64,000 nt of DNA from Actinomycetota bacterium (GTDB taxonomy: Bacteria > Actinomycetota > Actinomycetes > Actinomycetales > Dermatophilaceae). Where the stretch lies: the NCBI GenBank assembly GCA_020161845.1, contig JAIUNK010000019.1:20187-84186 (forward strand), in the 5' to 3' direction. Positions 1,465-31,403 of the stretch are shown here, one piece after another. Within the stretch, counting starts at the first letter, position 1. Every line of letters starts with the position of its first letter. The notes below the pieces were generated by a model. The model was not told the origin of the DNA. It was given only the letters and a program-made list of their open reading frames with translations, and did no database searches. Both the position numbers and the translations under genes were made by a program.

Positions 1465-1492
1465 CCATCGGCCGAGGCTGTCGCGCGATGAG
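1465..1492 (-). promoter_or_regulatory. FliA (sigma-28)-type promoter for the glycosyltransferase
   Basis: On the minus strand, CTCA (rc of 1489-1492), 16 nt, then GCCGATGG (rc of 1465-1472). The predicted start near 1458 leaves a leader of about 56 nt before ATG 1402. It matches the motif found upstream of the flagellar units in this window. Confidence 0.65.
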
Positions 1493-1512
1493 GTCCCTCC
1501 TTCGCCAGCCTG

Positions 1513-1541
1513 CTCAGAAGCGTTACCCCGTAAGCCGATAG
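1513..1541 (+). promoter_or_regulatory. FliA-type promoter for the hypothetical gene at 1601
   Basis: CTCA (1513-1516), 17 nt, GCCGATAG (1534-1541). It is divergent from the promoter at 1465-1492 and about 20 bp away from it, so the two genes share one control region. The predicted start is near 1548. Confidence 0.65.
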
Positions 1542-1600
1542 GGCAACGTGAGGACAATGTGTGGAGCACGACCTGCTGCTCGGCCCTGGCAGGTGGGCGT

Positions 1601-2260
1601 GTGAGTCCATCGCCGTCGAGCGATGAGGTCAACTTCGTCGCAGGGCAGGACCAGGCGGTGCGGCGGATCGTCGGTACGTCGGGTGCCCGCCCACTAGGGT
1701 CGCCGGACGCCGACCGGCACTCGGCGTACGGGCAGGCTCCGGCGTACGGCCTGGACAGCGCTGACCCCCGCCCGGGCGCCGTCGAGGTGCCGGCCTTCCG
1801 CGTGGTGGTGGCCACCGACTTCGCCGCCGAATCGCTGTCCGCCCGAACCGCGCCGCTGTCTGTGCTCAAGGCTTTTGCGCTCATGTTCTCGGCCGGGCAA
1901 CCCGTGAACCTGATCTTCGCCGTCGACCACGAGGCCGCAGAGGCGGATGCTCTGGCCGCGCAGCAGCTCCTGGCGCAACTCCCGGGGGACCGACCGCTGG
2001 CGGGCATCGCGATCGAGTCGTTCGACGAGGCGCCGGCTCAGCCGACGTACGTCTCGCTCATCCCGCAAGGCGATCCCGCCGCGCTGATCACCGACCTGGC
2101 GAAGACCCTGACGGCGATGCACCTGCTCGCCGAGACTCTGGCTCATCCAGGCCGGCTGCGGATCGCTCTCGTCCATCAGCACCTCATCGCGCGCGTCCGC
2201 GACCGCCGCCTGGCCGACCGCCTGACCAGCTATCGCGAGGTCGACCTTCCCGGGTTGTAG
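1601..2260 (+). CDS. Hypothetical protein, paralogue of the gene ending at 202
   Basis: The conserved-looking part begins at FRVVVATDFAAESLS (about 1795) and runs to the stop. The stretch PLSVLKAFALMFSAGQPVNLIFAV resembles the linker and beta-strand pattern of GT-B glycosyltransferase C-domains, but no catalytic motif is evident and I do not assign a function. Start choice is uncertain. GTG 1601 follows AGGTGGG (1591-1597). GTG 1559 with GAGGA at 1550-1554 is also possible; both lie after the FliA-type promoter. The last 50 residues match the partial gene at 2-202. It is divergent from the glycosyltransferase, and a shared role in flagellar glycosylation is inferred from regulation only. Confidence 0.55.
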   Translation: MSPSPSSDEVNFVAGQDQAVRRIVGTSGARPLGSPDADRHSAYGQAPAYGLDSADPRPGAVEVPAFRVVVATDFAAESLSARTAPLSVLKAFALMFSAGQPVNLIFAVDHEAAEADALAAQQLLAQLPGDRPLAGIAIESFDEAPAQPTYVSLIPQGDPAALITDLAKTLTAMHLLAETLAHPGRLRIALVHQHLIARVRDRRLADRLTSYREVDLPGL

Positions 2261-2320
2261 TGGGGCGCGGTCGGACCGGGCGTCGACACCTGTCGGCCTG
2301 ATCTCACGTGTCAGAACATT

Positions 2321-2355
2321 GCCAGATGACGCATGCGGCGAATCTGGCATAGGAT
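2321..2355 (+). promoter_or_regulatory. Autoregulated leaderless promoter of the toxin-antitoxin pair
   Basis: The inverted repeat GCCAGAT (2321-2327) / ATCTGGC (2342-2348) brackets GCATGC (2331-2336). It directly abuts the -10 element TAGGAT (2350-2355). A start 7 nt downstream falls on the A of ATG 2362, so the mRNA is probably leaderless. The repeat covers the promoter, as expected for an operator bound by an AbrB-type antitoxin or its complex. Confidence 0.6.
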
Positions 2356-2361
2356 CGTCAT

Positions 2362-2703
2362 ATGGCAGAACGCGCTTCGGTGAAGGTCGGTCCCTCGAAT
2401 CGTGTCGTCATGCCCGCCCAGGTCAGGGCCGCGTTGGGGGTCCAAGAAGGTGACCGTGTCGAGTTCGTCATTGACGGAGTTGACGTCCACCTAGTGTCGC
2501 CCCACATCCGGCTCGCCGCCGTGTGGGCCAAAAATCACGGTGGCGACGGCGGGGACTCGACGAGCGACGTCCGAGAGGCGCGCCTGAACGACCTCGCCCA
2601 GCAGGATGCCAAGTGGGACCGCATCGAGGCCGCCGTGAGCGGCGACGACCGCAGCGAAGACGAGATCGCCGCCGATCTGCTCGCCCGTATCGGTCTCGAC
2701 TGA
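2362..2703 (+). CDS. AbrB/MazE-type antitoxin of a VapBC-like pair
   Basis: The product has 113 residues. Residues 5-48 form a SpoVT-AbrB swapped-hairpin DNA-binding domain: VKVGPSNRVVMPAQVRAALG, then VQEGDRVEFVIDGVDVHLV. The acidic C-terminal half, including DDRSEDEIAADLLARIGLD, would wrap and neutralise the PIN toxin. The ATG overlaps nothing upstream and sits at the probable transcription start. The stop TGA at 2701-2703 overlaps the toxin ATG by one base, so translation is coupled. By family, it should repress its own promoter through the inverted repeat at 2321-2348. Confidence 0.8.
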   Translation: MAERASVKVGPSNRVVMPAQVRAALGVQEGDRVEFVIDGVDVHLVSPHIRLAAVWAKNHGGDGGDSTSDVREARLNDLAQQDAKWDRIEAAVSGDDRSEDEIAADLLARIGLD

Positions 2704-3143
2704 TGGTGGCCGTGTGCCTTGACTCCTCCGCCGTCGTCTCCTTGCTGATCCAGGAACGCGGGTGGCAGGCCGTCCACGCGGTTTTGCAGCGTGTCGACAG
2801 CGCGTTCCTCCCGTGCCCAGGTCTCGCCGAGGTGATCACAACGACTCGGGAGAAGGGCAACGTCTCGACCGGCCCAGAGATCGCCGAGGCGTTGCGCGGT
2901 CAAGGGGTCGAGTTCGCCCAGAGCACTGAGGCCGATCTGATCGAGGCCGCCGACCTTCTGGAAATGTCGGCGACCCATCCCGGCCCACCCGGACGAAACG
3001 GCAGGCCTGCCACATTGTCGATGGCCGACGCCCTGATTATCGCCGCCGCGCAGCGCCTCGGTGCACCCGTCCTCACCCGTGACCGGTACTGGTCGGACCT
3101 CGCCCACGCCGGCCTGATCCGAGTCACGATCCACACGTTCTGA
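2703..3143 (+). CDS. PIN-domain ribonuclease toxin (VapC-like)
   Basis: The product has 146 residues, a normal VapC length. The PIN acidic residues are visible: Asp in CLDSSAVVSLL (about residue 6), Glu in GLAEVITT, Asp in SMADALIIAAAQ and Asp in LTRDRYW. These coordinate Mg2+ for RNA cleavage. The start ATG 2703-2705 overlaps the antitoxin stop. A longer upstream reading frame exists but overlaps the antitoxin and lacks PIN features. The pair lies between the glycosyltransferase region and the chemotaxis genes, with hairpins on both sides, and looks like a separate insertion. The RNA target is not predictable. Confidence 0.85.
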   Translation: MVAVCLDSSAVVSLLIQERGWQAVHAVLQRVDSAFLPCPGLAEVITTTREKGNVSTGPEIAEALRGQGVEFAQSTEADLIEAADLLEMSATHPGPPGRNGRPATLSMADALIIAAAQRLGAPVLTRDRYWSDLAHAGLIRVTIHTF

Positions 3144-3187
3144 CGCCGCTGAAACCGGACACGCCGTTCGTAGCACCCAGACGCGAC

Positions 3188-3250
3188 GACGCGGCCCGGC
3201 GTGCCGGTCCGCCTCCCGGGGGAGGCAGCAACGGTACGCCGGGCCGCGTC
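3188..3250. terminator. Nested double-hairpin bidirectional terminator
   Basis: Arms 3188-3206 and 3232-3250 pair at 18 of 19 positions, with a G-T at the other. The apical loop holds a second hairpin, GCCTCC-CGGG-GGAGGC (3211-3226). It separates the convergent toxin gene (stop 3143) and the minus-strand gene ending at 3276. Confidence 0.7.
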
Positions 3251-3275
3251 AAGGGACCGAGCAGCGGGCCGAGCA

Positions 3276-3761
3276 CTACATGGGGACGACGATGCCGATC
3301 GCGCCGAGCCCGTAGCCCTCGATGTCCAGCTGGTAGTCGGCACGTTTGCCGAGACCACGCAGCAGCATGGCGGCATTCGTGGGAATCACCGAACCAGGCT
3401 GGAACACCGCATTGAGCTTGAGGTGCGTCTCGTTCTCGCCCACGTTGAACAGGGACGCGAAGATGTTGAGCACCTCATAAAAGTTGTCGTAGAGCGCCGG
3501 TGGCAGCTCCACGTTCTCGATGGCCGAATTCGCCCCGGTCGGGGGCACCAGGCCGAGCGCCGCGCCGGAGCGCGCCGCCAAATCGAGGTCCGCGCAGACG
3601 AGCGCCTTGGTGTCGAGGTTGCCGTCGACGTACAGGCCGGTGCAGCAGGCGCGTCGCGCGCTGGGCACCACCGGCTTGTCGTGCGGCGAGATCGTCACCG
3701 TGCGGCCCAGAAGGTCCTGGAAGAGGTCCTTCACGGGCTTTGGCTCGGGGATGGGAGTCAT
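3276..3761 (-). CDS. Conserved-looking protein of the chemotaxis locus, possibly CheX/CheC-related
   Basis: The product has 161 residues from ATG 3761; a longer ORF begins at 3833 without a better start. The sequence runs from KDLFQDLLGRTVTISPHDKP, through YVDGNLDTKALVCADLDLAARSGAAL, to ALYDNFYEVLNIFASLFN. The last motif, a helix followed by hydrophobic strands, is reminiscent of CheX/CheC folds, where such helices carry the phosphatase residues. However, no clear ExxN motif is seen. There is no signal peptide or membrane segment. It lies 85 bp downstream of cheY and is probably read from the FliA-type promoter upstream of cheX (4885-4912). The function is inferred from context only. Confidence 0.6.
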   Translation of the reverse strand: MTPIPEPKPVKDLFQDLLGRTVTISPHDKPVVPSARRACCTGLYVDGNLDTKALVCADLDLAARSGAALGLVPPTGANSAIENVELPPALYDNFYEVLNIFASLFNVGENETHLKLNAVFQPGSVIPTNAAMLLRGLGKRADYQLDIEGYGLGAIGIVVPM

Positions 3762-3846
3762 GGTCCTAGAGCGTTTCTCGCGATACTGCGCGGATGGGGG
3801 AGAGGCGTACGCCGTGGCTGCGGCGCGCGCCAAGTAAGCAGGGGCG

Positions 3847-4209
3847 TCAGCCCAGGACCGGCTTCAGGGCCTCGGAGAACATGTCCGCCGTGAACGGCTT
3901 GGCGATGAGGAACAGCGCGCCGTGCTCGGAGGCCTGCGAACGCATCGCGTCCGAACCCTCGGAGGTCACGAAGCCGAACGGGACCTGGTTGCCGTCCGCG
4001 CGCAGCGCCTGCAGGAACTCGATCCCACTCATGTTGGGCATGTTCCAGTCGGACAGCACCATGTCGGGGCTGTTGGCCTTGACGGCCGCCAGACCTTCGG
4101 CGCCGTCCTCACATTCGATGATGTCCGCGCCGTCGTACCCGGCCTGGCGCAGGGTACGGACCACGATCATCCGCATCGCGCGGCTGTCATCGGCAACTAC
4201 GACCTTCAC
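3847..4209 (-). CDS. cheY: CheY-type single-domain response regulator
   Basis: The product has 120 residues, receiver domain only. Acidic pocket D7 and D8, phosphorylation site D54 in VLSDWNMP, T82 in FVTSEG and K104 in IAKPFT are all present, so it should be phosphorylated by CheA and bind the flagellar switch. The start is GTG 4209 (VKVVVADD). A second CheY is encoded at 8977; this one sits with the CheX-like genes, so it may be the dephosphorylation substrate of CheX. Confidence 0.9.
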   Translation of the reverse strand: MKVVVADDSRAMRMIVVRTLRQAGYDGADIIECEDGAEGLAAVKANSPDMVLSDWNMPNMSGIEFLQALRADGNQVPFGFVTSEGSDAMRSQASEHGALFLIAKPFTADMFSEALKPVLG

Positions 4210-4307
4210 GGTTGTCTCACTCTCTGGGTCAATCTGTCAGTCACAAGGGAAACACAGGGGAAAAGGACTCTTGGCCCGGCTGGCGCTCGCGCGCCCGGAG
4301 CAGAATG

Positions 4308-4760
4308 TCAGGACTTCTGGGGCCGGTTCCACACGGTGAGGAACATGGGGAATCCCCCGGCGATATAGCCGGCCTCGAGGAGCGGCTTCCCGCCGGGCAC
4401 CCGCAGCGTCGGGCTCTTGCCCTGGGCGACGACCGGAAGCGAGAGCGTGCTCGGTTCGGGCAGCAGGGATTTGATGTTCCCGCCGACCATATTCGTCAGC
4501 TCGCCGATGCCGTCGGCGATGTCGTCGTCGGAGGCTTCGTCGTCGGCCATGCCGAACATCGTGGCCGCGAACCGGCGCGCGCCGTCGCCGCCCATCTCCA
4601 TGGAGATGAGGCAGTCGGTGGCCCCGGTGACCCCCACGGACCCCGCGACGGCGTCGTTGGTCTCCGGGCGAGGCATGTCGACGGCTTCGGCGTCAATGCC
4701 GAGCATCGAGCTCCACACCTCTTGGATGATCTGTGCGACATCGTCGCTGGACAAGTGCAT
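4308..4760 (-). CDS. cheX: CheX-like chemotaxis phosphatase
   Basis: The product has 150 residues. The segment DDDIADGIGELTNMVGGNIKSLL has the E-x-x-N arrangement (GELTNMVGGN) of the CheX/CheC/FliY active-site helix, which hydrolyses CheY-P. MEMGGDGARRFAATMFGM is the preceding strand and helix of that fold. It starts at ATG 4760 and is the first gene of a minus-strand unit, cheX-cheY-(3276-3761). It is read from the FliA-type promoter at 4885-4912, divergently from cheA. Confidence 0.8.
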   Translation of the reverse strand: MHLSSDDVAQIIQEVWSSMLGIDAEAVDMPRPETNDAVAGSVGVTGATDCLISMEMGGDGARRFAATMFGMADDEASDDDIADGIGELTNMVGGNIKSLLPEPSTLSLPVVAQGKSPTLRVPGGKPLLEAGYIAGGFPMFLTVWNRPQKS

Positions 4761-4884
4761 ACTCGGTCCTTTGTGAAGTCCTTCAGGCAGGCCCTTCGGA
4801 ATGGACGGCGGTCGGCCGAATCTAACGGCGCGGCCGGGTCTGCTGCCCCGGGCCGCACGGCCTTACCACACGTGGACGACGGCC

Positions 4885-4912
4885 TTATCGGCTCTGCCAC
4901 AAGGGACTTGAG
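4885..4912 (-). promoter_or_regulatory. FliA-type promoter of cheX
   Basis: On the minus strand, CTCA (rc of 4909-4912), 16 nt, GCCGATAA (rc of 4885-4892). The -10 part equals the classical sigma-28 -10 consensus. The predicted start is near 4878. Confidence 0.75.
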
Positions 4913-5140
4913 CGTTCGTCGCTGGTCATGACGCCGGGATCACCGCCGTGTCGACCGGGCCCGTGGACCCGAAGAGTCCATCGTCCGCTGCGCCGGACGG
5001 TGAAGGCCACCCGGGCGCCGTCTCGCCCCTCGGTCGCCGGCCCCCCTGCTGCGCCGCAGCACTCCCGCCGCGGCGGGGCCGCGATCCCCACGGGGGCGCA
5101 GCTTTCCGGATCCCGGCGGTTCTGCGATCCGGCGCGGCGG

Positions 5141-5168
5141 CTCAGCTCCCCCCATTCTCAGGCGATAG
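5141..5168 (+). promoter_or_regulatory. Upstream FliA-like promoter of cheA
   Basis: CTCA (5141-5144), 16 nt, GGCGATAG (5161-5168). The -10 deviates at one position from GCCGAT. It is in tandem with the stronger match at 5210. Confidence 0.45.
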
Positions 5169-5209
5169 GTTCCCGGCGCGAAACGCTCTGCGAACAGCCG
5201 TAACTCTGC

Positions 5210-5237
5210 CTCAGATCGCGGAGTCAGGAGCCGATTG
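5210..5237 (+). promoter_or_regulatory. FliA-type promoter of cheA
   Basis: CTCA (5210-5213), 16 nt, GCCGATTG (5230-5237). The predicted start near 5244 precedes the GAGGAG ribosome site at 5261-5266. Confidence 0.75.
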
Positions 5238-5273
5238 AAGCCTCGATTCCCCTATCTCACGAGGAGTATGCCG

Positions 5274-7730
5274 ATGGAAGGCATGGAGGAGATCGTTCAG
5301 GAGTTCCTGATCGAATCCCACGAGAACCTTGACCAGCTGGACCAGGACCTGCTCGCCCTCGAGCGGGACCCCAACTCCCGTGAGCTGCTGTCGAGCATCT
5401 TCCGCACCCTCCACACGATCAAGGGCACCAGTGGCTTCCTGGCCCTGCACACGCTCGAACGAGTGGCGCACGCCGGCGAAAGCCTGCTGAGCAAGCTGCG
5501 TGACGGCGAGATGGCGCTCAACAACGAGATCGCAACCACGCTGCTGGAGATGGTCGACGCCGTCCGCGCGCTGCTCGGGCACATCGAGAACGACGGCAAC
5601 GAGGGCACCGAGACCTACGAAGAACTGGTCGCGCACCTGCAGGACCTGCTCGAGGGCCGGTTCCGGGACGGCGCGGCCGCCGAGGCTCAGGAGTCCCCGC
5701 AGGCGATCGACAGCGCCGATGAGTCGGCGCAGGCGGCCGCTGTCGTCGCCACCGCCGCCGTCGAGGCGGCCGTGGCCGTGGCGGCCGGCGGATCGTCGGC
5801 CGGCACGCCCGCCCCGGCACCGGTCGCGCTCGCGGAGGGACCTGGCGAGCCACCCGCTGAGGCACCCGCGGCAGCCGAGACGCCCGCGGCAGCCGAGGCG
5901 CCAGCGGCTCCCGCTCCCGCCGTACCGTCTGCGCCCAAGGAAGCGGCGACCGCCGCCGCCAAGGCGCAGACAACGGCCGCCAAGGCCGCCTCTGAGAGCG
6001 CCCCCGTCCAGGCCAAGGGCGACGAGCACCGTCGCAGCGTCGCCGACTCCAGCATCCGCGTCGACGTCGACCTGCTCGACACGCTGATGAACCTGGTCGG
6101 TGAGCTGGTCCTGACCCGCAACCAGCTGATCCAGCGGGCCGCGGCCCGCCAGGACCAGGAGCTGATGCGCTCGATGCATCGCCTCAACCTCGTCGCCGGC
6201 GAGCTGCAGGAGGGCGTCATGAAGACGCGCATGCAGCCCATCGACAACGTCTGGTCGAAGATCCCCCGCGTGGTGCGCGACCTGGCCAACCAGATGGGCC
6301 GCCAGATCCGCGTCGACATGGAGGGCAAAGACACCGAGCTCGACAAGACGATCCTTGAGGCCATCAAGGACCCGCTGACGCACCTGGTCCGCAACTCCTG
6401 CGACCACGGCATCGAGACGCCGGAGACCCGCATCGCCAAGGGCAAGCCGGCCGAGGGTCGCCTGCTCATGCGGGCGTTCCACGAGGGCGGCCAGGTCAAC
6501 ATCGAGATCATCGACGACGGCGCCGGCATCGACCCCGACAAGCTGCGCGACAAGGCCGTCGAAAAGCAGTTGCTGTCCCGCGAGGAAGCCGACCGGCTCA
6601 GCGACCGGGACGCGTTCCACCTCATCTTCAAGGCGGGCTTCTCCACCGCCGCCCAGGTCACCAATGTCTCCGGCCGTGGCGTCGGGATGGACGTCGTCAA
6701 GACGAACATCGAGAAGATCGGCGGCGTCATCGACGTCAGCAGCGTCACCGGTGAGGGCACCACGGTCCGCATCAAGATCCCGCTGACCCTGGCGATCATC
6801 CCCGCGCTGCTGGTTCGCGGCGACGAGAACATGTTCGCGATCCCGCAGGTCAACCTCCTGGAACTGGTCCGTCTGGACAAGGAGCAGGCGGCCGAGCGCC
6901 TGGAGAACATCCAGGGCACCCCGGTCTACCGGCTGCGCGGGGCGTTGCTCCCGCTGGTCGACCTGCGCAAGCAGATCGCCGCCGAGGAGATCGAGCACGA
7001 AACCACGTTCATCGCGGTCCTCAAGGCCGACGAGAAGCAGTTCGGTCTCGTCGTCGACGACATCGAGGACACCGAGGAGATCGTCGTCAAGCCGCTGGGC
7101 AAGCAGCTGCGGGGCATCAACCTCTACGCCGGCGCCACCCTGATGGGTGACGGCCGCGTCGCGCTGATCCTCGACGCGAACAGCCTGGCCGGCCGCGCGG
7201 GCATGATCAACGACTCGGGCGAGGCCGCCAAGCGGGCCGCCGAGGAGGCCGCGCGCCGCTCCAACAGCGACGCCACCTCGCTGCTGGTCGTCAAGCTGGG
7301 CAACGGCCGCCGCGCGGCGCTGCCGCTGAAGGTCGTGGAGCGGCTGGAGGAGTTCCCGATGGCGCGCGTGGAGACCGTCGGTGCGAACCAGGTCGTCCAA
7401 TACCGCGGGGTCATCCTCCCGCTGCTGCGCCTCGCCGACGACTACGGCAGCTACGAGGCCATGGAGGAGAACGCGCCGCTGCAGGTCGTCGTCTGCCAGC
7501 ACCGCGGGCAGCTGTTCGGCTTCGTGGTCAGCCAGGTGCTCGACATCGTCGAGGACGAGCTGGCCATCCGCACCCACCTCGACACCGGGGGCAACCTCGG
7601 CTCCGACGTCGTCAACGAGCACGTCACCGAGCTGCTCAACATCGACCACGCGCTGCTGGGGATGCTCCCGCCGGAGTTGGAGAACTACGGCCAGCAGTTC
7701 ACCGACGACGAGTACGCCGGGCTGCGGTGA
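5274..7730 (+). CDS. cheA: Chemotaxis histidine kinase CheA with two CheW-like domains
   Basis: The product has 818 residues. The HPt domain is at 1-130 with phospho-His H47 in RTLHTIKGTSGF. Residues 135-255 are an Ala/Pro-rich linker in place of a recognisable CheY-binding P2 domain. Next come the P3 dimerisation region from about 265, a HATPase_c domain with N box LVRNSCDHGIETPE, G1 DDGAGID and G2 GRGVGMDVV, and a P5 CheW-like domain. A second CheW-like segment (TSLLVVKLGNGRRAALPLKV onward) ends the protein. ATG 5274 is chosen because GAGGAG (5261-5266) is 7 nt upstream; TTG 5235 lies inside the promoter. It autophosphorylates and transfers phosphate to CheY and CheB. Confidence 0.93.
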   Translation: MEGMEEIVQEFLIESHENLDQLDQDLLALERDPNSRELLSSIFRTLHTIKGTSGFLALHTLERVAHAGESLLSKLRDGEMALNNEIATTLLEMVDAVRALLGHIENDGNEGTETYEELVAHLQDLLEGRFRDGAAAEAQESPQAIDSADESAQAAAVVATAAVEAAVAVAAGGSSAGTPAPAPVALAEGPGEPPAEAPAAAETPAAAEAPAAPAPAVPSAPKEAATAAAKAQTTAAKAASESAPVQAKGDEHRRSVADSSIRVDVDLLDTLMNLVGELVLTRNQLIQRAAARQDQELMRSMHRLNLVAGELQEGVMKTRMQPIDNVWSKIPRVVRDLANQMGRQIRVDMEGKDTELDKTILEAIKDPLTHLVRNSCDHGIETPETRIAKGKPAEGRLLMRAFHEGGQVNIEIIDDGAGIDPDKLRDKAVEKQLLSREEADRLSDRDAFHLIFKAGFSTAAQVTNVSGRGVGMDVVKTNIEKIGGVIDVSSVTGEGTTVRIKIPLTLAIIPALLVRGDENMFAIPQVNLLELVRLDKEQAAERLENIQGTPVYRLRGALLPLVDLRKQIAAEEIEHETTFIAVLKADEKQFGLVVDDIEDTEEIVVKPLGKQLRGINLYAGATLMGDGRVALILDANSLAGRAGMINDSGEAAKRAAEEAARRSNSDATSLLVVKLGNGRRAALPLKVVERLEEFPMARVETVGANQVVQYRGVILPLLRLADDYGSYEAMEENAPLQVVVCQHRGQLFGFVVSQVLDIVEDELAIRTHLDTGGNLGSDVVNEHVTELLNIDHALLGMLPPELENYGQQFTDDEYAGLR

Positions 7731-7735
7731 TCGTC

Positions 7736-8170: not shown

Positions 8171-8224
8171 GCGAGCAGTAGCGCTGCCGTGAGCAGTTGC
8201 GCTGCCGCGCACGACGTACGGCAT

Positions 8225-8346: not shown

Positions 8347-8374
8347 CTTGAGAACGTAGCCGCTTCGCCGATGT
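8347..8374 (+). promoter_or_regulatory. FliA-like promoter of the second cheW unit
   Basis: CTTG (8347-8350), 16 nt, GCCGATGT (8367-8374). The -35 part matches CTCA only in its first two bases, but spacing and -10 are conserved. The predicted start is near 8381. Confidence 0.45.
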
Positions 8375-8433
8375 GAAGAATGACCCGCCGGGCTGCGGCC
8401 CGGCCAGCAGTCCCTCCGAGAGAAGAGCGCTCC

Positions 8434-8874
8434 ATGGCGAACCAGTACTGCACGTTCCGCCTCGGCGGTCACCTCTTCGGGGTGCCCGTGGAGACGGTCC
8501 AGGAAGTCCTGCGACAGCAGGAGCTGACCAAGGTGCCGTTGTCCTCGCCGGAGGTGCGCGGCCTGATCAACCTGCGCGGCCAGATCGTCGTGACGGTCGA
8601 CCTGCGCTGCCGGATCGGCTTGCCGGAGCGCGCGGCCGACACCCCGGTCACCAATGTCGTCGTCCGGACCAGCGAGGGCGCCACCAGTCTGCTCGTGGAC
8701 GAGATCGGCGATGTGCTGGAGCCGGATCTGGACCGATTCGAGGCACCGCCGGAGACGGTCCCGGCGCGGGTCCGCGACCTGGTGGTCCGGGTCTGCAAGC
8801 TCGACCACGACCTCATGCTCGTCCTCGACACGGACAAGGCCGTCGCTGTCGACGGCGCCGCCTCCGCTGCCTAA
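8434..8874 (+). CDS. cheW: CheW coupling protein, second copy
   Basis: The product has 146 residues and the same CheW fold as its neighbour, sharing the N-terminal run YCTFRLGGHLFGVPVETVQE exactly. It arose by local duplication. Differences cluster around residues 45-75 and at the C-terminus, which could alter array coupling. ATG 8434 has GAGAGAAG 8 nt upstream. It heads a cheW-cheY-cheB-cheR unit; whether the two CheW copies serve distinct receptor sets cannot be told here. Confidence 0.9.
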   Translation: MANQYCTFRLGGHLFGVPVETVQEVLRQQELTKVPLSSPEVRGLINLRGQIVVTVDLRCRIGLPERAADTPVTNVVVRTSEGATSLLVDEIGDVLEPDLDRFEAPPETVPARVRDLVVRVCKLDHDLMLVLDTDKAVAVDGAASAA

Positions 8875-11321: not shown

Positions 11322-11365
11322 CAACGGCGCCGTACGTCGGGGGAGCCCGGCGTCCGGCGCCGTTG
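11322..11365 (+). terminator. Hairpin ending the chemotaxis operon
   Basis: CAACGGCGCCG (11322-11332) pairs perfectly with CGGCGCCGTTG (11355-11365). It begins 11 nt after the cheR stop and precedes the flgB promoter. Confidence 0.6.
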
Positions 11366-11431: not shown

Positions 11432-11459
11432 CTCAGAGCGGACGTCGCCGCGCCGAAGA
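11432..11459 (+). promoter_or_regulatory. FliA-type promoter of the flgB operon
   Basis: CTCA (11432-11435), 16 nt, GCCGAAGA (11452-11459). The predicted start near 11466 gives a leader of about 120 nt to flgB ATG 11585. Confidence 0.7.
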
Positions 11460-22834: not shown

Positions 22835-22869
22835 GCGACGCGCCCACCTCGTGGAGGTGGGCGCGTCGC
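22835..22869 (+). terminator. Perfect 16-bp hairpin after flgE
   Basis: 22835-22850 pairs perfectly with 22854-22869 across a GTG loop; CTTGCTTT follows. It ends the long flgB-flgE unit, 14 bp before the flbD promoter. Confidence 0.8.
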
Positions 22870-22882: not shown

Positions 22883-22910
22883 CTCAGTTCACCAGATCGG
22901 CTGTCGATAG
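22883..22910 (+). promoter_or_regulatory. FliA-type promoter of the flbD-motAB-fliL unit
   Basis: CTCA (22883-22886), 16 nt, GTCGATAG (22903-22910). One mismatch to GCCGAT. The predicted start near 22917 leaves a leader of about 72 nt. Confidence 0.6.
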
Positions 22911-24886: not shown

Positions 24887-24899
24887 GAGCATGTTCCAG

Positions 24900-25385: not shown

Positions 25386-25415
25386 GGCCCCCGTGGGCAC
25401 CCCTTCCACCCCGGT

Positions 25416-25454
25416 AATCGCCTCAGAAGCAGGCGATTCGAGCCGATCTGAGGC
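25416..25454 (+). promoter_or_regulatory. FliA-type promoter of fliM, overlapping two alternative hairpins
   Basis: CTCA (25422-25425), 16 nt, GCCGATCT (25442-25449), with the fliM GTG at 25458, so the transcript would be almost leaderless. The same bases include AATCGCCT/AGGCGATT (25416-25423/25431-25438) and GCCTCAGA/TCTGAGGC (25420-25427/25447-25454). These two pairings are mutually exclusive, and the second would hide the GAGG ribosome site in read-through mRNA from motB-fliL. Confidence 0.6.
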
Positions 25455-25457
25455 AAC

Positions 25458-26324
25458 GTGAACGGCACCCCTGCGCTCTACGACTTCCGGAGTCCCAGCC
25501 GGTTCAGTCGCGAGCAGGTGCGTGCCCTGCAGATGGTGAACGAGACGTTCGCCCGGCAGATGGCGACGGTCCTGTCGACGACGCTGCGGATCGTCGGTCA
25601 CGCCGGCCTGACCAGCGTCGAACAGGTCACCTACGACGACTACGCCCGGGCACTGCCGAACCCCTCGCTGTTGGCGGTCTGCGAGTTCGCGCCGATGGGC
25701 GGCGACGGCGTCTTCCAGATGCCGATGGAAGTCGTGATGAGCGTCATCGACCGGCTGCTCGGCGGACCGGGCACCGACGAACAACCCAGCCGGGCCCTCT
25801 CAGACATCGAGGCCGGCCTGATCCGCAGCGTGGTCCAGCGGATCGTGCGCGAGCTGACCTACGCCTTCGATGCGCTGGCTCCGGTCAAGGCCACCGTGCA
25901 GTCGCTGGAGTCGGACGTGCAGCTGTTGCAGCTGGCCCCCCCGCAGGACCCGATGGTCATCTCCAACTTCGAGCTGCGCATCGGCGATCTCGTCTCGACC
26001 GCCACGTTGTGTATCCCGGTCTCGACGGTCGCCCCGGTCCTCGACGTGCTCAAGGCGAAGCCGCAAGAGTTGACCGGGCCGCAAGCCGCCGCCGCGCGCG
26101 CGCTCAAGGACCGCATGCAAGAGGTGCCGGTCACGGTGACGGTGGCCTTCGAACCGATCCAGTTGACCAGTCACGAGGTGCTCGACCTTCAGGTCGGCGA
26201 CGTGCTACCGCTGCGGCACCCCACCAACCAGCCGTTGACGCTGTCGGCCGACGGGGTGGCCGTCGGTGCCGCCGTGCCCGGCAGTCACGGTAGCCGGCTC
26301 GCCTGCCAAATCGTGACCCTCTAG
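25458..26324 (+). CDS. fliM: Flagellar motor switch protein FliM
   Basis: The product has 288 residues. The N-terminus YDFRSPSRFSREQVRALQMVNETFARQMATVL is the conserved start of the FliM middle domain. A central CheC-like fold follows, and a SpoA domain (VTVTVAFEPIQLTSHEVLDLQVGDVLPLRH) closes it. The N-terminal CheY-P-binding peptide (LSQxEIDALL type) usual in FliM is absent; only a few residues precede the middle domain. CheY-P may therefore dock elsewhere, for example on FliN. GTG 25458 has GAGG 4 nt upstream. Confidence 0.9.
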   Translation: MNGTPALYDFRSPSRFSREQVRALQMVNETFARQMATVLSTTLRIVGHAGLTSVEQVTYDDYARALPNPSLLAVCEFAPMGGDGVFQMPMEVVMSVIDRLLGGPGTDEQPSRALSDIEAGLIRSVVQRIVRELTYAFDALAPVKATVQSLESDVQLLQLAPPQDPMVISNFELRIGDLVSTATLCIPVSTVAPVLDVLKAKPQELTGPQAAAARALKDRMQEVPVTVTVAFEPIQLTSHEVLDLQVGDVLPLRHPTNQPLTLSADGVAVGAAVPGSHGSRLACQIVTL

Positions 26325-26361
26325 ACCTCCGTCCCCACACCCTGCCGCGAAGGAACCGCCG

Positions 26362-27477
26362 ATGTCCTCCCTCAACGAAGAACTCGACGCCGCACTGGTA
26401 GCGGCCGCCGAGGCGTTGCCGAGCCACTTCGCGGAATCCGCCGAGCTGACGATCGAGGTGCTCTCGGCCATCCAGGCGACCACGCTGTCGCTGCCGGGCG
26501 GCGCGTACGGGATCGAGAGCGTCATCAAGGACGCGGGCAACGTCGGCTCCGCCGTCTTGATCGTGACCGGTCTGATCGACCACGCGACCGGGGAGATCCT
26601 GGACCGCACCGAGGCGCGGGACAAGTGGACGGCCGCGCTCACCGAGGCGCTGACCGCGCTGAAGGGTTCGCTCGGCGAGTTCAAGTCGGGCCAGATCCAC
26701 ATGACCGATGCCTTCGACGTGCTGGACAAGGCCGACGAGTGCAACGTGGTGGGTCTGTTCAGCGGCCAAACGCTGGCGGCTCTGCTGTTGACCCTCCCCG
26801 CCAAGGCCACCGGCCAGGGCGCCTCCGCCCAGCTCGCGGCGGCCATCGAGGCGGCCGAGTCCGACGAGGCCGACGACGGGGCCGACGACGGTGACGCCGC
26901 CGACGCTACGGCGGCCGACGATGAGGGTGGCGAGGGTGCCGCTGCCGCTGGCGCCGGTCCTGTCGCCGCAGCGACCGAGGAGGGCGGCGTGCAGGTGGCC
27001 CCCGGTCTCGGGGCTCCCGGCGCCGCTGCTGCCGCACCCGGCGCCCAGGCCGCCCCCGGCGCCCAGGCCGCCTCCGGTGCCCCCGGCGAACCGGTCGGCG
27101 ATCCGACGATGCACGGCGTCTATGTCCCCCCGCCGCCGCGCGACCCCCATGGGCCGACCGGCGCCCCCGCCATGACGCTGGCGCCCCTGACGGGCCAGTT
27201 CAGCTACTCCATCGACCCGCGCCGGATCGACCTGCTGCGCGACGTGATGATGGGTGTCAGTGTCGAACTGGGCCGCACCCGAATGCCGGTGCAGCAGATC
27301 CTCGGCCTCATCCCGGGCTCCATCATCGAACTCGACCGCGCCGCGGGGGCACCCGTCGACGTGATGGTGAACGGCAAGCTCATCGCCCACGGCGAGGTCG
27401 TCGTCGTCGACGAGGAGTTCGCCGTGCGCATCTCCGAGGTCTGCACGCCCGACAGCGACGGGCGGGTCAGCGCGTGA
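26362..27477 (+). CDS. fliN: Flagellar motor switch protein FliN/FliY with extra N-terminal domain
   Basis: The product has 371 residues, far longer than the 100-140 of simple FliN. Residues 1-150 form an alpha/beta domain of CheC/CheX-like appearance (NEELDAALVAAAEALPSHF ... GSAVLIVTGLID). Residues 151-270 are an acidic then Ala/Pro/Gly linker. Residues 275-365 are the SpoA/FliN domain (LLRDVMMGVSVELGRTRMPV ... NGKLIAHGEVVVVDEEFAVRI). The layout recalls FliY of Firmicutes, which binds and dephosphorylates CheY-P. A phosphatase motif is not certain here. It overlaps fliO by 4 nt. Confidence 0.88.
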   Translation: MSSLNEELDAALVAAAEALPSHFAESAELTIEVLSAIQATTLSLPGGAYGIESVIKDAGNVGSAVLIVTGLIDHATGEILDRTEARDKWTAALTEALTALKGSLGEFKSGQIHMTDAFDVLDKADECNVVGLFSGQTLAALLLTLPAKATGQGASAQLAAAIEAAESDEADDGADDGDAADATAADDEGGEGAAAAGAGPVAAATEEGGVQVAPGLGAPGAAAAAPGAQAAPGAQAASGAPGEPVGDPTMHGVYVPPPPRDPHGPTGAPAMTLAPLTGQFSYSIDPRRIDLLRDVMMGVSVELGRTRMPVQQILGLIPGSIIELDRAAGAPVDVMVNGKLIAHGEVVVVDEEFAVRISEVCTPDSDGRVSA

Positions 27478-27920
27478 CGGACGGCTCGACCGTCGCCCTC
27501 CTGCTGCGCATGGCGGTCTCGTTGGCGGTCGTCCTGGCCGTCATCGTCTGGGCGGCCAGGGTGCTGCACCGGCGCCAGGGCGGCCTGCTGGGTCGAGTGC
27601 AGCGAGAGGTCCCGGTCACGGTGCTCGCGCGCCAATCCCTGTCCCGACACGCCGGGCTCTCGGTGGTCGAGGTCGGCCCCCGGATTCTCGTCCTCGGCGT
27701 GACGGACGCCGAGGTCAGCCTGCTGACGACGCTGGACTCATCGGAGCTGACCGAGGACATCGCCGCGCCGGCCGCCCCCGCGGCCTCGTTCGCCGAGGCG
27801 CTGCGGCACGCCGGGGGGCTCGGTGCCCGGCGCGAGGTCAAGCGCCAGGCGGAGCAGGCCCGCGAGATCGCCGATCGTCTTGACGGCGTCGATCGCTCCG
27901 GGGGACGGCACCGTGGCTGA
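27474..27920 (+). CDS. fliO: Flagellar export protein FliO
   Basis: The product has 148 residues. One N-terminal membrane helix (LLLRMAVSLAVVLAVIVWAARVL) is followed by a FliO domain (VTVLARQSLSRHAGLSVVEVGPRILVLGVTDAEVSLL). It assists FliP assembly. It starts with GTG 27474, overlapping fliN; the stop overlaps the fliP start by 8 nt. Confidence 0.88.
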   Translation: MTDGSTVALLLRMAVSLAVVLAVIVWAARVLHRRQGGLLGRVQREVPVTVLARQSLSRHAGLSVVEVGPRILVLGVTDAEVSLLTTLDSSELTEDIAAPAAPAASFAEALRHAGGLGARREVKRQAEQAREIADRLDGVDRSGGRHRG

Positions 27921-29034
27921 GCCCGACCGCACGAACCTGCGCCGCGCCCACCGGCCACCGCGGCCCGTGGCGGCCGTGGTGGCCCGGCTGCCGAAGGGGG
28001 CCGATGGTCGACCGCTGCGGGCGCGCCAGCGCCTCGTCGTGGCGGCCCTGCTCCTGCTCGTCGGCGGCGCATTGCTCAGCCCCGCGCTCGAGGCGGCACG
28101 CACCTCGTTCGCGGGCTCGGGCAGCACGGCCCAGGCCGCCTGGTCGGGCGCCGCGCCGGCCGTCTCAGCGCCTGCTGCGCCGTCGGCCATCTACGGGATC
28201 CCGCCTGCCGCGCCGCCCTCGGCGTACGCTCGCACGACGCACGGGCAGCCCGGGACCGCCCCGACCTCACCCGCCGAGCCGGCGGCAGCCGCAATCGCCG
28301 TACCCGCGGCCCCCGCCGCGCCCGGGGCACCCGCGGCGCCCACCGTCCCCGCCGTGCCCACCGTCGGGCCGGGCGGCGTCAGCGTCTCGGTCGACACCGG
28401 CACGGCCGGGCGCAATCAGGTCATCCAGATCATCATCTTGATGACGGTGCTCTCGATCGCGCCGTCGCTGCTGCTGCTCTGTACGTCGTTCACCAAGATC
28501 GCGGTCGTGTTGTCGCTGACGCGCAATGCCCTCGGCACCCCGACCATCCCGCCCAACCAGGTCCTCGCCGGCCTGGCGCTGTTCCTGAGCCTGTTTGTGA
28601 TGTCGCCGGTCATCTCGCAGATGAACGACGTCGGCGTGCAGCCCTATCTCAACAACCAGCTGAACGAGCAGCAGGCGCTGGCGAAGGGTGGCGAACCGCT
28701 GCGGCTCTTCATGGCCGCCCACACCGGTGACATGGAACTGCAGACCATGATCAAGATGAGCAAATCGGAGCAGCCGAGGAACAAGGCGGACACCTCGTTC
28801 ACGACGCTCATTCCGGCGTTCATCCTCTCCGAGCTCAAGAGTGCTTTCATCATCGGTTTCGTCATCTTCATCCCCTTCCTCGTCATCGACCTGGTCGTGA
28901 GTTCGGTGCTGATGTCGATGGGCATGATGATGCTGCCGCCGGTGATGATCTCGCTGCCGTTCAAGTTGCTGCTGTTCGTCATGGTCGACGGCTGGTCGCT
29001 CATCACGACGGCGCTCATCACGAGTTATCGCTAG
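27913..29034 (+). CDS. fliP: Flagellar export gate protein FliP with N-terminal extension
   Basis: The product has 373 residues; enteric FliP has about 245. Residues 1-35 are basic, 37-58 form a hydrophobic segment (VVAALLLLVGGALLSPALEA), and 59-155 are an Ala/Pro-rich linker. The FliP core follows: VIQIIILMTVLSIAPSLLLL, TSFTKIAVVLSLTRNALGTP and IPFLVIDLVVSSVLMSMGMM. GTG 27913 is used; internal starts near the core are possible, so the extension needs checking. It forms the export gate with FliQ and FliR. Confidence 0.9.
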   Translation: MAEPDRTNLRRAHRPPRPVAAVVARLPKGADGRPLRARQRLVVAALLLLVGGALLSPALEAARTSFAGSGSTAQAAWSGAAPAVSAPAAPSAIYGIPPAAPPSAYARTTHGQPGTAPTSPAEPAAAAIAVPAAPAAPGAPAAPTVPAVPTVGPGGVSVSVDTGTAGRNQVIQIIILMTVLSIAPSLLLLCTSFTKIAVVLSLTRNALGTPTIPPNQVLAGLALFLSLFVMSPVISQMNDVGVQPYLNNQLNEQQALAKGGEPLRLFMAAHTGDMELQTMIKMSKSEQPRNKADTSFTTLIPAFILSELKSAFIIGFVIFIPFLVIDLVVSSVLMSMGMMMLPPVMISLPFKLLLFVMVDGWSLITTALITSYR

Positions 29035-29051
29035 CGGCGCGGGGGAGAACT

Positions 29052-29324
29052 ATGACCGACAACCAGGTGATGCATATCGCCGTGCAAGCGATGATCCTCG
29101 GGGTGAAGGTGGCCGGCCCGGTTCTGCTGGTCAGCCTCGTGATCGGCTTCGCGATCTCCCTGCTGCAGGCGGTCACCCAGGTCCAGGAGATGACCCTCAC
29201 CTTCGTGCCCAAGATCATCGTCGCCGCCCTGATCCTGCTGCTGCTGGGGAACTGGATGATGGGCGAGATGGTCGGCTTCACCCGGCAGCTGTTCCACGAT
29301 CTGCCGGCGTTGCTGCAGAAATGA
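29052..29324 (+). CDS. fliQ: Flagellar export gate protein FliQ
   Basis: The product has 90 residues and two membrane hairpin helices (AGPVLLVSLVIGFAISLLQA and IIVAALILLLLGNWMMGEMV) with the family motif QAVTQVQEMTLTFVPKI. ATG 29052 follows GGGGGAG (29041-29047). The stop overlaps fliR by 4 nt. Confidence 0.95.
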   Translation: MTDNQVMHIAVQAMILGVKVAGPVLLVSLVIGFAISLLQAVTQVQEMTLTFVPKIIVAALILLLLGNWMMGEMVGFTRQLFHDLPALLQK

Positions 29325-30124
29325 CCGCGGCGACGCTGGCCCCGGCGGCCGGGGTCACCCTCAGCGGCTCCTACGAGCTGCTGCTCACCTATCTGCTCGT
29401 CATGGCCCGGCTGATGGCGTTCCTGGTCATCGCCCCCCCGTTCAGCGGTCGCATGCTCAGCATGAAGGTCAAAGGTGCCTTGGCGGCCGCCTTGGCCCTG
29501 CCGATCGCCCCCGCGCTGGCCAGCGAGGCTCGGTTCGCCGACATGTACGCCCTGGCCTGGGCGGTGGTTTATCACATCGGCACCGGAGCGGTGCTGGGCT
29601 TCCTCGCCATGATGCTGTTCGCCGCCGTCCAGACGGCCGGGGACCTGATCGACCTGTTCAGCATGTTCACGATGAGCCAACTGCTCGACCCCTTCTCCAA
29701 TACCCAGAGCGGCGTCTTCGGCCGCATCCAACGGCTGATTGGCACCACGTTGCTGTTCGCCTCCGGCGGGCACCTCGTGATGCTGCAGGGGGTCCTGCGC
29801 AGCTTCCAGGTCGCGCCCCTGCATGCGCCGGCGCTGGGCGAAACGGCCCAGCTGCTGGTGCGGGACCTCGGCGTGTACGTCGTGGCCGCGCTGGAGATTT
29901 GCGGACCCATCGTCGCGGTCCTGGTGCTGGCCGACATCTCGTTGGGCCTGGTCAGCCGCGCCGTGCCCAGCCTGAACATCTTCCAGCTGGCGTTTCCGGT
30001 CAAGACCGTGCTCACGGTCGCGCTCGCGAGCATCTCCGTGTCGCTGCTGCCGGCCGCCGTCAGCCTCCTCGTGGACCGGATTCAGACCGACATGGGCGTG
30101 GTCAACCGGTTGCTGGGGGGGTGA
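29321..30124 (+). CDS. fliR: Flagellar export gate protein FliR
   Basis: The product has 267 residues with about six hydrophobic segments. The family pattern MARLMAFLVIAPPFSGRMLSMKVK near the start and a QTAGDLIDLFSMFTMSQLLDPFSNTQ motif are clear. It completes the FliPQR gate. ATG 29321 overlaps the fliQ stop. Confidence 0.93.
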   Translation: MTAATLAPAAGVTLSGSYELLLTYLLVMARLMAFLVIAPPFSGRMLSMKVKGALAAALALPIAPALASEARFADMYALAWAVVYHIGTGAVLGFLAMMLFAAVQTAGDLIDLFSMFTMSQLLDPFSNTQSGVFGRIQRLIGTTLLFASGGHLVMLQGVLRSFQVAPLHAPALGETAQLLVRDLGVYVVAALEICGPIVAVLVLADISLGLVSRAVPSLNIFQLAFPVKTVLTVALASISVSLLPAAVSLLVDRIQTDMGVVNRLLGG

Positions 30125-30130
30125 GCGGCC

Positions 30131-31363
30131 GTGGCCGAGGACAAGCACAGCAAGACCGAGAAGCCCACCGGCAAGCGCCGCAAGGAGGCCAAGGACGAGG
30201 GCAATGTCGCCAAGACGCCGGACCTGTCGGCCTGGTTGACGGTGTTGGCGTTCGTGGCGCTGGGGCCTTACACGGTGGGCGCCCTGCGCGGCGCGTTCAC
30301 CGAGCTCCTCAACGAGGTCCCCCGCATGGCGAGCCGGCCGGACGTCCTGGAGATCCGCCCCATCATGCTGTCGGTGCTGGCCGACTTCGCCAAGATCGTC
30401 GGTCCGATCGTGTTCGCCTGCATGGTGCTCGGTGTCATGGGGCACGTCGTCCAGGGCGGCGTGCACGTCTCGTCCAAGCGCTTCAAGCCGAAGTGGAAGA
30501 AGCTCAACCCGGGACCGGGCATCAAGAACATGTTCGGCGCGCAGAGCCTGTGGACCCTGACCAAGACGCTGATCAAGTTCGTCGTCTTCGGCACGGTGGC
30601 CTTCATGGTGAGCCGCGACGTCATCAGCCGGCTCGCCACCAGCGGGCGGTGGAGCCTGTCGGCCGTGGTCTCGGTGGGCGCCGCCTCAGCCATGGACATC
30701 CTCCGGCTCATCGCGATCACCGGTCTGGTGATCGCGGCGGCTGACTGGGTGATGGAGAAGCGCCGCGTCGAGAAGTCGCTGAAGATGACCAAAGACGAGG
30801 TCAAGCGCGAGGCCAAGATGCAGGAAGGGGACCCGCTGGCCAAGGGGCAGCGCAAGGCCCGCGCCCGCGAAATGGCTCGGCAGCGCATGATGGCCAACGT
30901 CGCCGACGCCACGGTCGTCATGGTCAATCCGACCCACGTGGCGGTCGCGCTGAAATACGAACCCGGCGGCGGCGCCCCCCAGGTGGTCGCCAAGGGCGCC
31001 GGCCATCTGGCGCTGCGGATCCGCGCAGAAGCCGAGGAGCACGGCGTACCGATGGTCCGGGACCCCCTCGTCACCCGCATGCTCTACAAGCTGTGCGAGG
31101 TCGATCACTACATCCCCCCGGACCTGTACGACGCCATCGCCCAGGTCCTCGCGTTCGTCTTCTACCTGGATCAGATGGGCAAGGCCGACGGCACCCATGA
31201 GACCCCGGTCGCCCACGATCCGGACGACGTGCCGGAGGAGTACTCCGACGACGCGCTGGGCCTGCGGGCGCACCCGGACGCTGCCGACGTGGTCGAGGGG
31301 GAGGTGGCGGCACCGGACGGCGAGCCGGGCCGCCATCGAGACGATTCGCACCGCGTCGCCTAG
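30131..31363 (+). CDS. flhB: Flagellar export switch protein FlhB
   Basis: The product has 410 residues. The N-terminus KTEKPTGKRRKEAKDEGNVAKTPDL is typical, followed by four membrane helices and the cytoplasmic autocleavage site NPTH at about 266-269. After the FlhB domain there is an acidic tail of about 60 residues (DPDDVPEEYSDDALGLRAH onward) longer than in enteric FlhB. Self-cleavage and FliK switch export from hook to filament substrates. GTG 30131 is 6 bp after fliR. Confidence 0.95.
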   Translation: MAEDKHSKTEKPTGKRRKEAKDEGNVAKTPDLSAWLTVLAFVALGPYTVGALRGAFTELLNEVPRMASRPDVLEIRPIMLSVLADFAKIVGPIVFACMVLGVMGHVVQGGVHVSSKRFKPKWKKLNPGPGIKNMFGAQSLWTLTKTLIKFVVFGTVAFMVSRDVISRLATSGRWSLSAVVSVGAASAMDILRLIAITGLVIAAADWVMEKRRVEKSLKMTKDEVKREAKMQEGDPLAKGQRKARAREMARQRMMANVADATVVMVNPTHVAVALKYEPGGGAPQVVAKGAGHLALRIRAEAEEHGVPMVRDPLVTRMLYKLCEVDHYIPPDLYDAIAQVLAFVFYLDQMGKADGTHETPVAHDPDDVPEEYSDDALGLRAHPDAADVVEGEVAAPDGEPGRHRDDSHRVA

Positions 31364-31375
31364 CCGTGGCCGACC

Positions 31376-31403
31376 CTCAGGTCGACCACTCCGGTGCCGA
31401 ATA
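31376..31403 (+). promoter_or_regulatory. FliA-type promoter of flhA
   Basis: CTCA (31376-31379), 16 nt, GCCGAATA (31396-31403). The predicted start near 31410 leaves about 50 nt before GTG 31461. Confidence 0.7.

What the first reader, a model, noticed from the sequence alone, without database searches (positions are those of the whole stretch)
1465..31403. A FliA-type promoter regulon readable directly from the sequence
CTCA-N16(17)-GCCGA(T/A) occurs upstream of nine units: 1465-1492(-), 1513-1541(+), 4885-4912(-), 5141-5168 and 5210-5237(+), 8347-8374 (weaker), 11432-11459, 22883-22910, 25422-25449 and 31376-31403. Spacing is 16 in all but one, and most sit just after a hairpin that ends the preceding unit. 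This defines the operon structure and an actinobacterial sigma-28 consensus with CTCA rather than TAAA at -35.
Basis: partly seen in the sequence, partly recalled or inferred. Interest (0 to 1): 0.75.

Follow-up and report, generated by a model that had tools for sequence, protein, structure and literature searches.

The report
Flagellar sigma-factor promoters of an actinobacterium
The repeated DNA signature in front of these swimming and chemotaxis genes is very probably a set of promoters for the flagellar sigma factor, of a kind already described in a related bacterium, and its differences between lineages seem to run parallel with changes in the part of that sigma factor that reads DNA.

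Summary
The set is real. CTCA-N16 before G[CT]CGA[AT] is the top tetramer-and-spacing pair of 3,584 tried upstream of genes in the flagellar part of the window. Genome-wide, 30 of 60 N16 matches lie within 200 nt upstream of a gene start, 4% expected. Six core promoters recur at the same operons in relatives. In the family, CTCAG-N15-GYCGAT is denser in 12 genomes with FlhA than in 47 without (p 2.5e-5).

Corrections: 5141 is not conserved, 8347 is weak, 1513 has a spacing (N17) without support elsewhere. Hairpins precede three of nine units clearly. Many genome-wide targets are not recognisable as motility genes.

CTCA-N16 equals TCAG-N15, in register with E. coli TAAA-N15, so the -35 differs from TAAAGTTT mainly at bases 2 and 4. 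CTCA(N15-17)GCCGAA was, as I recall, reported for Actinoplanes missouriensis (Jang 2016; not held), so the element is known.

The newer part, still a hypothesis: lineage-specific -35 words (CTCAG, GTCAGG, CTAAC/CTTAC) run parallel with the FliA recognition helix.

The parts
1467..1492 (-). probable FliA-type promoter CTCAT-N15-GCCGAT before a family-2 glycosyltransferase gene (coding from ATG at 1402)
   Evidence: exact N16 match; Glycos_transf_2; a 35%-identical gene in G248 has CTCAG-N15-GCCGAT 9 nt before its ATG; no orthologue at this place in the relatives fetched
1513..1539 (+). doubtful promoter, CTCA-N17-GCCGAT, before hypothetical gene 1601-2260
   Evidence: N17 sites lie within 200 nt upstream of a gene in 1 of 25 cases genome-wide, this being the one
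4887..4912 (-). FliA-type promoter before cheX (4308-4760); response regulator gene 3847-4209 and gene 3276-3761 follow
   Evidence: conserved in G239, G235, G210 and G248, not seen in G246; CheX and Response_reg hits
5141..5166 (+). CTCA-N16-GGCGAT upstream of the cheA promoter; probably not a promoter
   Evidence: mismatch in -10; no N16 counterpart in 4 relatives, a CTCA-N14-GGCGAT in one
5210..5235 (+). FliA-type promoter of the cheA operon
   Evidence: conserved in G239, G235, G210, G246; CheA domains
8347..8372 (+). weak candidate CTTGA-N15-GCCGAT before a second cheW (8434-8874)
   Evidence: like sequence in G239 only; CheW domain
11322..11365 (+). hairpin between cheR and the flgB promoter
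   Evidence: 20-nt arms, 90% complementary, 4-nt loop
11432..11457 (+). FliA-type promoter of the flgB operon
   Evidence: CTCA-N16 in 7 of 8 family genomes with flgB, window's included; Flg_bb_rod
22835..22869 (+). terminator-like hairpin after flgE
   Evidence: 16-bp perfect stem, T-rich tail
22883..22908 (+). FliA-type promoter CTCAG-N15-GTCGAT of flbD and the genes after it
   Evidence: exact CTCA-N16-G[CT]CGAT in 6 of 9 family genomes, imperfect in 3; FlbD
25422..25447 (+). FliA-type promoter of the fliM operon; GCCGAT ends 10 nt before the GTG start
   Evidence: CTCA-N16 in 8 of 9 family genomes, distance 10 nt in 7; FliM
31376..31401 (+). FliA-type promoter of flhA
   Evidence: CTCA-N16 in 11 of 11 family genomes, window's included; FHIPEP model

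Best explanation
The sites are promoters read by RNA polymerase carrying a FliA (sigma-28) sigma factor. Region 2 of the sigma factor would read G(C/T)CGAT and region 4.2 would read (C)TCAG(G)T, whose TCAG stands 15 bp upstream. The genome has two close FliA paralogues side by side on another contig (C76). Flagellar structural, export, motor and chemotaxis operons, the flagellin gene and the flgN-fliW-csrA genes carry this one promoter type, so early and late flagellar genes would be switched on together rather than in tiers. The fliA genes lack the motif and would be turned on by another sigma factor. No FlgM was detected, which fits the absence of a hook-completion checkpoint. Shown by computation: the motif, its spacing, its conservation, its link to family genomes with FlhA, and the sigma genes. 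Inferred: that FliA reads the sites, where transcription starts, and the absence of tiers.
For: CTCAN{15,17}GCCGAW: 96 matches against 26 for the reversed pattern; TAAAN{14,17}GCCGAW: 8 against 5. N16: 30 of 60 within 200 nt upstream of a gene, 4% expected, p 4e-26; outside the window 24 of 52; N17 1 of 25; N15 3 of 11. Among N16 sites CTCAG is 19 of 30 upstream but 1 of 19 inside genes, and GCCGAT 22 of 30 but 6 of 19. Same operons with diverged spacers in up to 11 family genomes. CTCAG-N15-GYCGAT: 221 vs 24 control in 12 FlhA+ genomes, 344 vs 120 in 47 FlhA- genomes; median per Mb 4.64 vs 1.85, p 2.5e-5, p 6e-4 without the genus. With the -35 left free, CTCAG-N15 is the top pentamer in the family set (39 of 113 sites). 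Two FliA genes on C76; best solved match 6pmi, named FliA, E 5e-35. Sites before flagellin (ACCGAT) and before flgN in own genome (GACGAT, 29 nt), G248, G239, G235 (29 nt each) and G246; flagellin, FlgN, FliW, CsrA by Pfam. No motif in 300 nt before either fliA. FlgM over cut-off in none of 12 family genomes.
Against: No transcript 5' ends or mutant were available. Across 197 genomes of the phylum raw counts of CTCA-N16-GCCGAW do not separate 41 genomes with FlhA from 156 without (p 0.63; own genome and one other FlhA+ genome are the strongest outliers, but several FlhA- genomes stand out too). Some FlhA- family genomes have many CTCAG matches (for example G212 19, G202 17). Of 24 downstream genes outside the window scanned with Pfam, 3 are flagellin/FlgK (two near-duplicates), 3 histidine kinases, 10 other families (for example lumazine synthase, glucosamine-6-phosphate isomerase type, TetR) and 8 none. 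In 3 of 12 FlhA-bearing family genomes no FliA was found at E 1e-20; I take this as assembly gaps but did not show it. In 18 more distant actinobacterial FlhA loci only 2 have a plain CTCA-N16-GCCGAT site before flhA.
Confidence: 0.92

Rival explanations
1. Promoters of the sigma-28 type, but read by another member of the sigma family, or split between the two FliA paralogues.
For: Own genome has 6 matches to the FliA_WhiG model; besides the two FliA genes there are C82 (533-aa frame, 112.8 bits), C44 (303 aa, 92.3 bits) and two under 27 bits. Many downstream genes are not flagellar.
Against: In the family the CTCAG motif is on median 2.5 times denser where FlhA is present. Matches of about 110 bits occur in all 18 genomes searched and are probably general or stress sigma factors (inference).
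Confidence: 0.12
2. The motif is an operator for a DNA-binding regulator of motility and not a promoter.
For: It lies upstream of whole operons and is conserved.
Against: Fixed direction relative to the gene, near-fixed 16-bp spacing, GCCGAT equal to the sigma-28 -10, short distance to starts (10 nt at fliM in 7 genomes).
Confidence: 0.03
3. Chance in GC-rich DNA.
For: Two exact matches in the window lie inside genes; raw phylum counts show no link to FlhA.
Against: Position test p 4e-26, first of 3,584 patterns, footprints at six operons.
Confidence: 0.01

Closest known systems
FliA promoters of Actinoplanes missouriensis, CTCA(N15-17)GCCGAA (Jang et al. 2016, J Bacteriol 198:2219; content recalled, paper not held; Hashiguchi et al. 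2020 likewise; both seen only in reference lists)
   Same: same -35 and -10, same spacing range, flagellar cluster under one promoter type (recalled); three FliA-family sigma factors there, two here
   Different: here GCCGAT in 22 and GCCGAA in 8 of 30 upstream N16 sites, and 31 of 35 sites have spacing 16; the organism is probably from another family (not established)
E. coli sigma-28 consensus TAAAGTTT-n11-GCCGATAA (PMC2859248 Table 1, passage)
   Same: same -10; with CTCA-N16 rewritten as TCAG-N15, T1, A3 and G5 coincide in register
   Different: A2 to C, A4 to G, T7 to C in the family consensus; early flagellar genes of E. coli are not FliA-dependent (recalled)
Streptomyces/Rubrobacter WhiG promoters, TAAA and GCCGATAA (PMC8325347, passages)
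   Same: related sigma factor, same -10
   Different: TAAA -35; WhiG-like helices keep His, (S/C)Q(L/I/M)H(T/S), where FliA here has SQMRAE

Membership tests
sigma-28 (FliA) promoter | -10 GCCGAT | tested here: met
   of 10 listed sites 7 have CTCA with GCCGAW, one GTCGAT, one GGCGAT, one GCCGAT with CTTG
sigma-28 (FliA) promoter | -35 TAAA 15 bp upstream | tested here: not met
   TAAA form not enriched, 8 vs 5; the element is TCAG in the same register
sigma-28 (FliA) promoter | transcription lost without FliA | not testable with these tools
   needs a mutant
Actinoplanes-type FliA promoter CTCA(N15-17)GCCGAW (definition recalled) | CTCA and GCCGAW at 15-17 bp | tested here: met
   not met by 5141, 8347 and, in the -10, 22883
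Actinoplanes-type FliA promoter CTCA(N15-17)GCCGAW (definition recalled) | a FliA-family sigma gene in the genome | tested here: met
   two on C76; model matches 181 and 171 bits, below the curated cut-off of 189.6, but best solved relative is FliA
Actinoplanes-type FliA promoter CTCA(N15-17)GCCGAW (definition recalled) | mapped starts downstream | not testable with these tools
   no RNA data
classic tiered flagellar regulon with FlgM checkpoint | FlgM present | tested here: not met
   none over cut-off in 12 family genomes; sub-threshold hits in G221 (E 0.09) and Aeromicrobium (E 0.011) inside long frames; Bacillus locus genome L118 found at E 1.8e-17; a short protein may be missed

The most novel reading that the evidence does not exclude
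Actinobacteria hold a natural series of re-specified flagellar promoters. The FliA recognition helix and the -35 element appear to have changed together: ESR(I/V)SQ(M/L/I)R(A/T)EA with CTCAG-N15, LSRVSQMRARA with GTCAGG/CTCAAG one base further away, H(S/A)A(V/I)SQ(Q/T)R(A/S)EA with CTAAC/CTTAC-N15, while WhiG-like factors in the same phylum keep His at the Arg position and, where studied, use TAAA. The -10 stayed nearly constant. This would give a readable code linking region 4.2 residues to -35 bases, and would explain how FliA and WhiG avoid each other's promoters in one cell.
Probability: 0.35. Interest if true: 0.6.

Novelty: new member of a known kind. Interest (0 to 1): 0.42.

Why it matters
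The promoter type can be used to draw the flagellar regulon of a whole actinobacterial family from sequence, including flagellin, flgN-fliW-csrA and possibly non-motility genes. Placing the actinobacterial -35 in register with the E. coli one shows that it differs at a few bases and is not an unrelated word. If the helix/-35 parallel holds, it offers a tractable case of how a sigma factor and its promoters change together.

Tried and rejected
Phylum-wide raw counts as a test of function: no association (p 0.63). Matches inside genes probably swamp the signal; the stricter family test separated the groups.

TAAA spacing from non-actinobacterial loci: in 28 loci, of 123 GCCGATA sites 1, 2, 4 and 3 have TAAA at N14, N15, N16 and N17, too few to fix the spacing; the E. 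coli consensus was taken from PMC2859248.

Autoregulation of fliA: considered because a CTCA site lies between the paralogues (C76:51351-51376, minus). Rejected as the fliA promoter because 1.07 kb without a called gene separates it from fliA-A, no motif stands within 300 nt of either fliA, and both have a TATAGT-like upstream sequence (by eye).

A single residue (His to Arg) as the whole cause of the -35 change: not upheld. Patulibacter has CTCAAG, and the two of its 12 sigma matches that I examined carry SQLHTK or CQIAGT.

My first hairpin search used too short a distance and missed the flgB hairpin; it was redone.

sigma-70 promoter scan of the cluster: nothing above chance. Literature on a helix/-35 comparison in Actinobacteria: nothing recognisable in the listings, nor on neighbouring topics; the held library lacks the key subscription papers.
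Full report
What was claimed.

What is there. All ten sequences are at the given coordinates. The window is contig 78, bases 20187-84186, of a 4.39-Mb genome in 82 contigs. Gene boundaries come from a codon-usage gene finder trained on this window. CheA, CheW, CheX, a response regulator, FlgB-type rod protein, FlbD, FliM and FlhA were confirmed with profile models; other flagellar names rest on gene order and my reading.

More than chance? With one mismatch, 22 matches occur in the window where shuffles give 10.8. Upstream of genes in window 1-34000, CTCA-N16 before G[CT]CGA[AT] is the most frequent of 3,584 tetramer/spacing pairs (6 cases). Genome-wide, CTCAN{15,17}GCCGAW has 96 matches and the reversed pattern 26. 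I looked at the surroundings of all 96: 44 intergenic, 6 partly overlapping a gene, 46 inside genes. Of 60 with N16, 30 lie within 200 nt upstream of a gene in the right direction, 19 inside genes, 11 elsewhere; 4% was expected from the window's own layout (p 4e-26). Outside the window it is 24 of 52. With N17 it is 1 of 25, namely 1513; with N15, 3 of 11. Upstream N16 sites are CTCAG in 19 of 30 and GCCGAT in 22 of 30; sites inside genes in 1 and 6 of 19. Contigs C3 and C70 are near-duplicates, so one site counts twice.

Relatives. In the same family the element recurs at the same operons while the bases between -35 and -10 differ (window's genome counted): flhA 11 of 11, cheA 5 of 5, fliM 8 of 9, flgB 7 of 8, cheX 5 of 6, flbD 6 of 9 exact. 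The distal cheA site 5141 has no N16 counterpart in 4 relatives. The weak 8347 site has one in G239; in G235, G210 and G246 the cheW match lies directly behind cheA and is not comparable. The glycosyltransferase behind 1465 has no orthologue in place, but a 35%-identical gene in G248 starts 9 nt after CTCAG-N15-GCCGAT. The part of the contig before the window holds flagellin, FliD and FlgK genes; flagellin has CTCAG-N15-ACCGAT upstream. flgN, followed by fliW and csrA, has the motif 29 nt upstream in own genome (GACGAT), G248, G239 and G235, and 9 nt upstream in G246. GTCGAT occurs as -10 at flbD, at flhA and flgN of G239, and at a flagellin-like gene, so the -10 is best written G(C/T)CGAT. 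At fliM the -10 ends 10 nt before the start codon in 7 genomes and 13 in one, which predicts a nearly leaderless message.

Hairpins. A wider search finds stems before cheW2, flgB and flbD, an imperfect one between cheX and cheA, and none before fliM or flhA.

Family-wide test. CTCAG-N15-GYCGAT is present at a median of 4.64 per Mb in 12 genomes with FlhA and 1.85 in 47 without (p 2.5e-5; without the window's genus p 6e-4); the reversed control does not differ significantly (p 0.11). A looser test across 197 genomes of the phylum gave no association (p 0.63).

Who reads it? The genome has two FliA paralogues, 78% identical, on contig 76. The closest solved sequences are 6pmi (named FliA; E. coli as I recall) and 6pfv (named sigma factor; Streptomyces WhiG as I recall). 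Neither fliA has the motif within 300 nt upstream. FlgM was not found over its cut-off in 12 family genomes; two weak hits, one of them in the family, lie inside long frames. The picture is one promoter type for basal body, export, motor, chemotaxis and filament. The absence of tiers is an inference.

Regulon outside motility. Of 28 called genes outside the window that follow a motif, I scanned 24 with Pfam (the 4 shortest, under 80 aa, left out): 3 flagellin or FlgK families (two near-duplicates), 3 histidine kinases, 10 other families, 8 none. So the motif is not confined to motility genes; some of these may be chance. In A. [quoted passage not shown]

The -35 in register. CTCA-N16 is the same as TCAG-N15. 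The E. coli consensus is TAAAGTTT-n11-GCCGATAA, that is TAAA-N15, and single changes at T1, A3 or G5 cut aer promoter activity from 223 to 23, 26 and 50 units (PMC2859248 Table 1, passage). The commonest bases of the family at -20 to -13 are C T C A G G T C. T1, A3, G5 and T6 are kept; A2 became C, A4 G and T7 C. 'CTCA rather than TAAA' thus overstates the difference.

Lineages. With only the -10 fixed, the commonest upstream word was CTCAG-N15 in the family (39 of 113 sites) and in Nocardioides, Aeromicrobium, Pseudosporangium and Dactylosporangium (4 of 18), GGTCA-N17 in four Geodermatophilaceae (5 of 23), CTTAC or CTAAC-N15 in six Micrococcales loci (8 of 34) and CTCAA-N15 in Patulibacter (4 of 7) (family and order names of these genera recalled). 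Non-flagellar sites dilute these fractions. Before flhA, only 2 of 18 distant loci have a plain CTCA-N16-GCCGAT site. The FliA helices differ in parallel: ESR(I/V)SQ(M/L/I)R(A/T)EA; LSRVSQMRARA; H(S/A)A(V/I)SQ(Q/T)R(A/S)EA; WhiG-like factors keep His. These rest on 29 sigma loci of the many matches; several genomes have further matches that I did not examine. Patulibacter, Cellulomonas (QSRISQLRTEA) and Nitriliruptoraceae (EARASQLRHEA) do not fit simply. The sample is small and phylogenetically clumped, so this is a hypothesis.

What is known. From memory, Jang et al. 2016 reported CTCA(N15-17)GCCGAA from mapped starts in A. missouriensis; the paper is not held and was seen only in reference lists. 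PMC8325347 (passages) gives TAAA/GCCGATAA for WhiG and says that Actinoplanes flagellar and pilus genes are transcribed by WhiG-like sigma factors. The promoter type is therefore known; this is a new, well-conserved member. I found no paper on the helix/-35 parallel in the listings.

Verdict. Very probably a FliA promoter set of a known kind, with three of the ten listed sites doubtful and the hairpin statement only partly upheld.

Noticed in passing
contig C76:49367-52282 (L173): Two FliA paralogues side by side, 78% identical; G235 and G239 also have two copies, about 6-7 kb apart; G248 has one whole copy and fragments, one at a contig end.
   Followed up: partly
C76:51351-51376 (-), L173: An exact CTCA-N16-GCCGAT site between the two fliA genes with no called gene for about 1.07 kb downstream; possibly an untranslated RNA.
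   Followed up: no
window 25442-25458: fliM promoter ends 10 nt before the start codon in 7 family genomes, predicting a near-leaderless mRNA.
   Followed up: partly
window 302-1402 and L031:12620-13882: Related family-2 glycosyltransferases on either side of the flagellin gene cluster; the window copy has a probable FliA-type promoter, which suggests flagellin glycosylation.
   Followed up: partly
L295:356-386 (G248:C41): Two overlapping CTCAG-N15-GCCGAT sites on opposite strands, formed by a palindrome; one stands 9 nt before a glycosyltransferase gene.
   Followed up: no
L292 and L293 (contigs C3 and C70): Two small near-duplicate contigs each carry two flagellin-like genes with CTCA sites; recent duplication, or an assembly or strain-mixture effect.
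   Followed up: no
L174 around 4073 (C24:30072): A CTCA-N16-GCCGAT site in the long spacer between what read as dnaA and dnaN (by eye); probably chance.
   Followed up: no
window 2362-3143: A MazE-type antitoxin domain gene and a PIN-domain gene, a likely toxin-antitoxin pair between the glycosyltransferase and chemotaxis genes.
   Followed up: partly
window 35409-37407: Nickel-dependent hydrogenase large subunit and a small-subunit-type gene shortly after the flagellar genes; neighbouring genes read like the rest of a hydrogenase cluster (not tested).
   Followed up: partly
L053 after position 1650 (C50): Short repeats that look like a CRISPR array (by eye) downstream of one motif match with N17, probably chance.
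   Followed up: no
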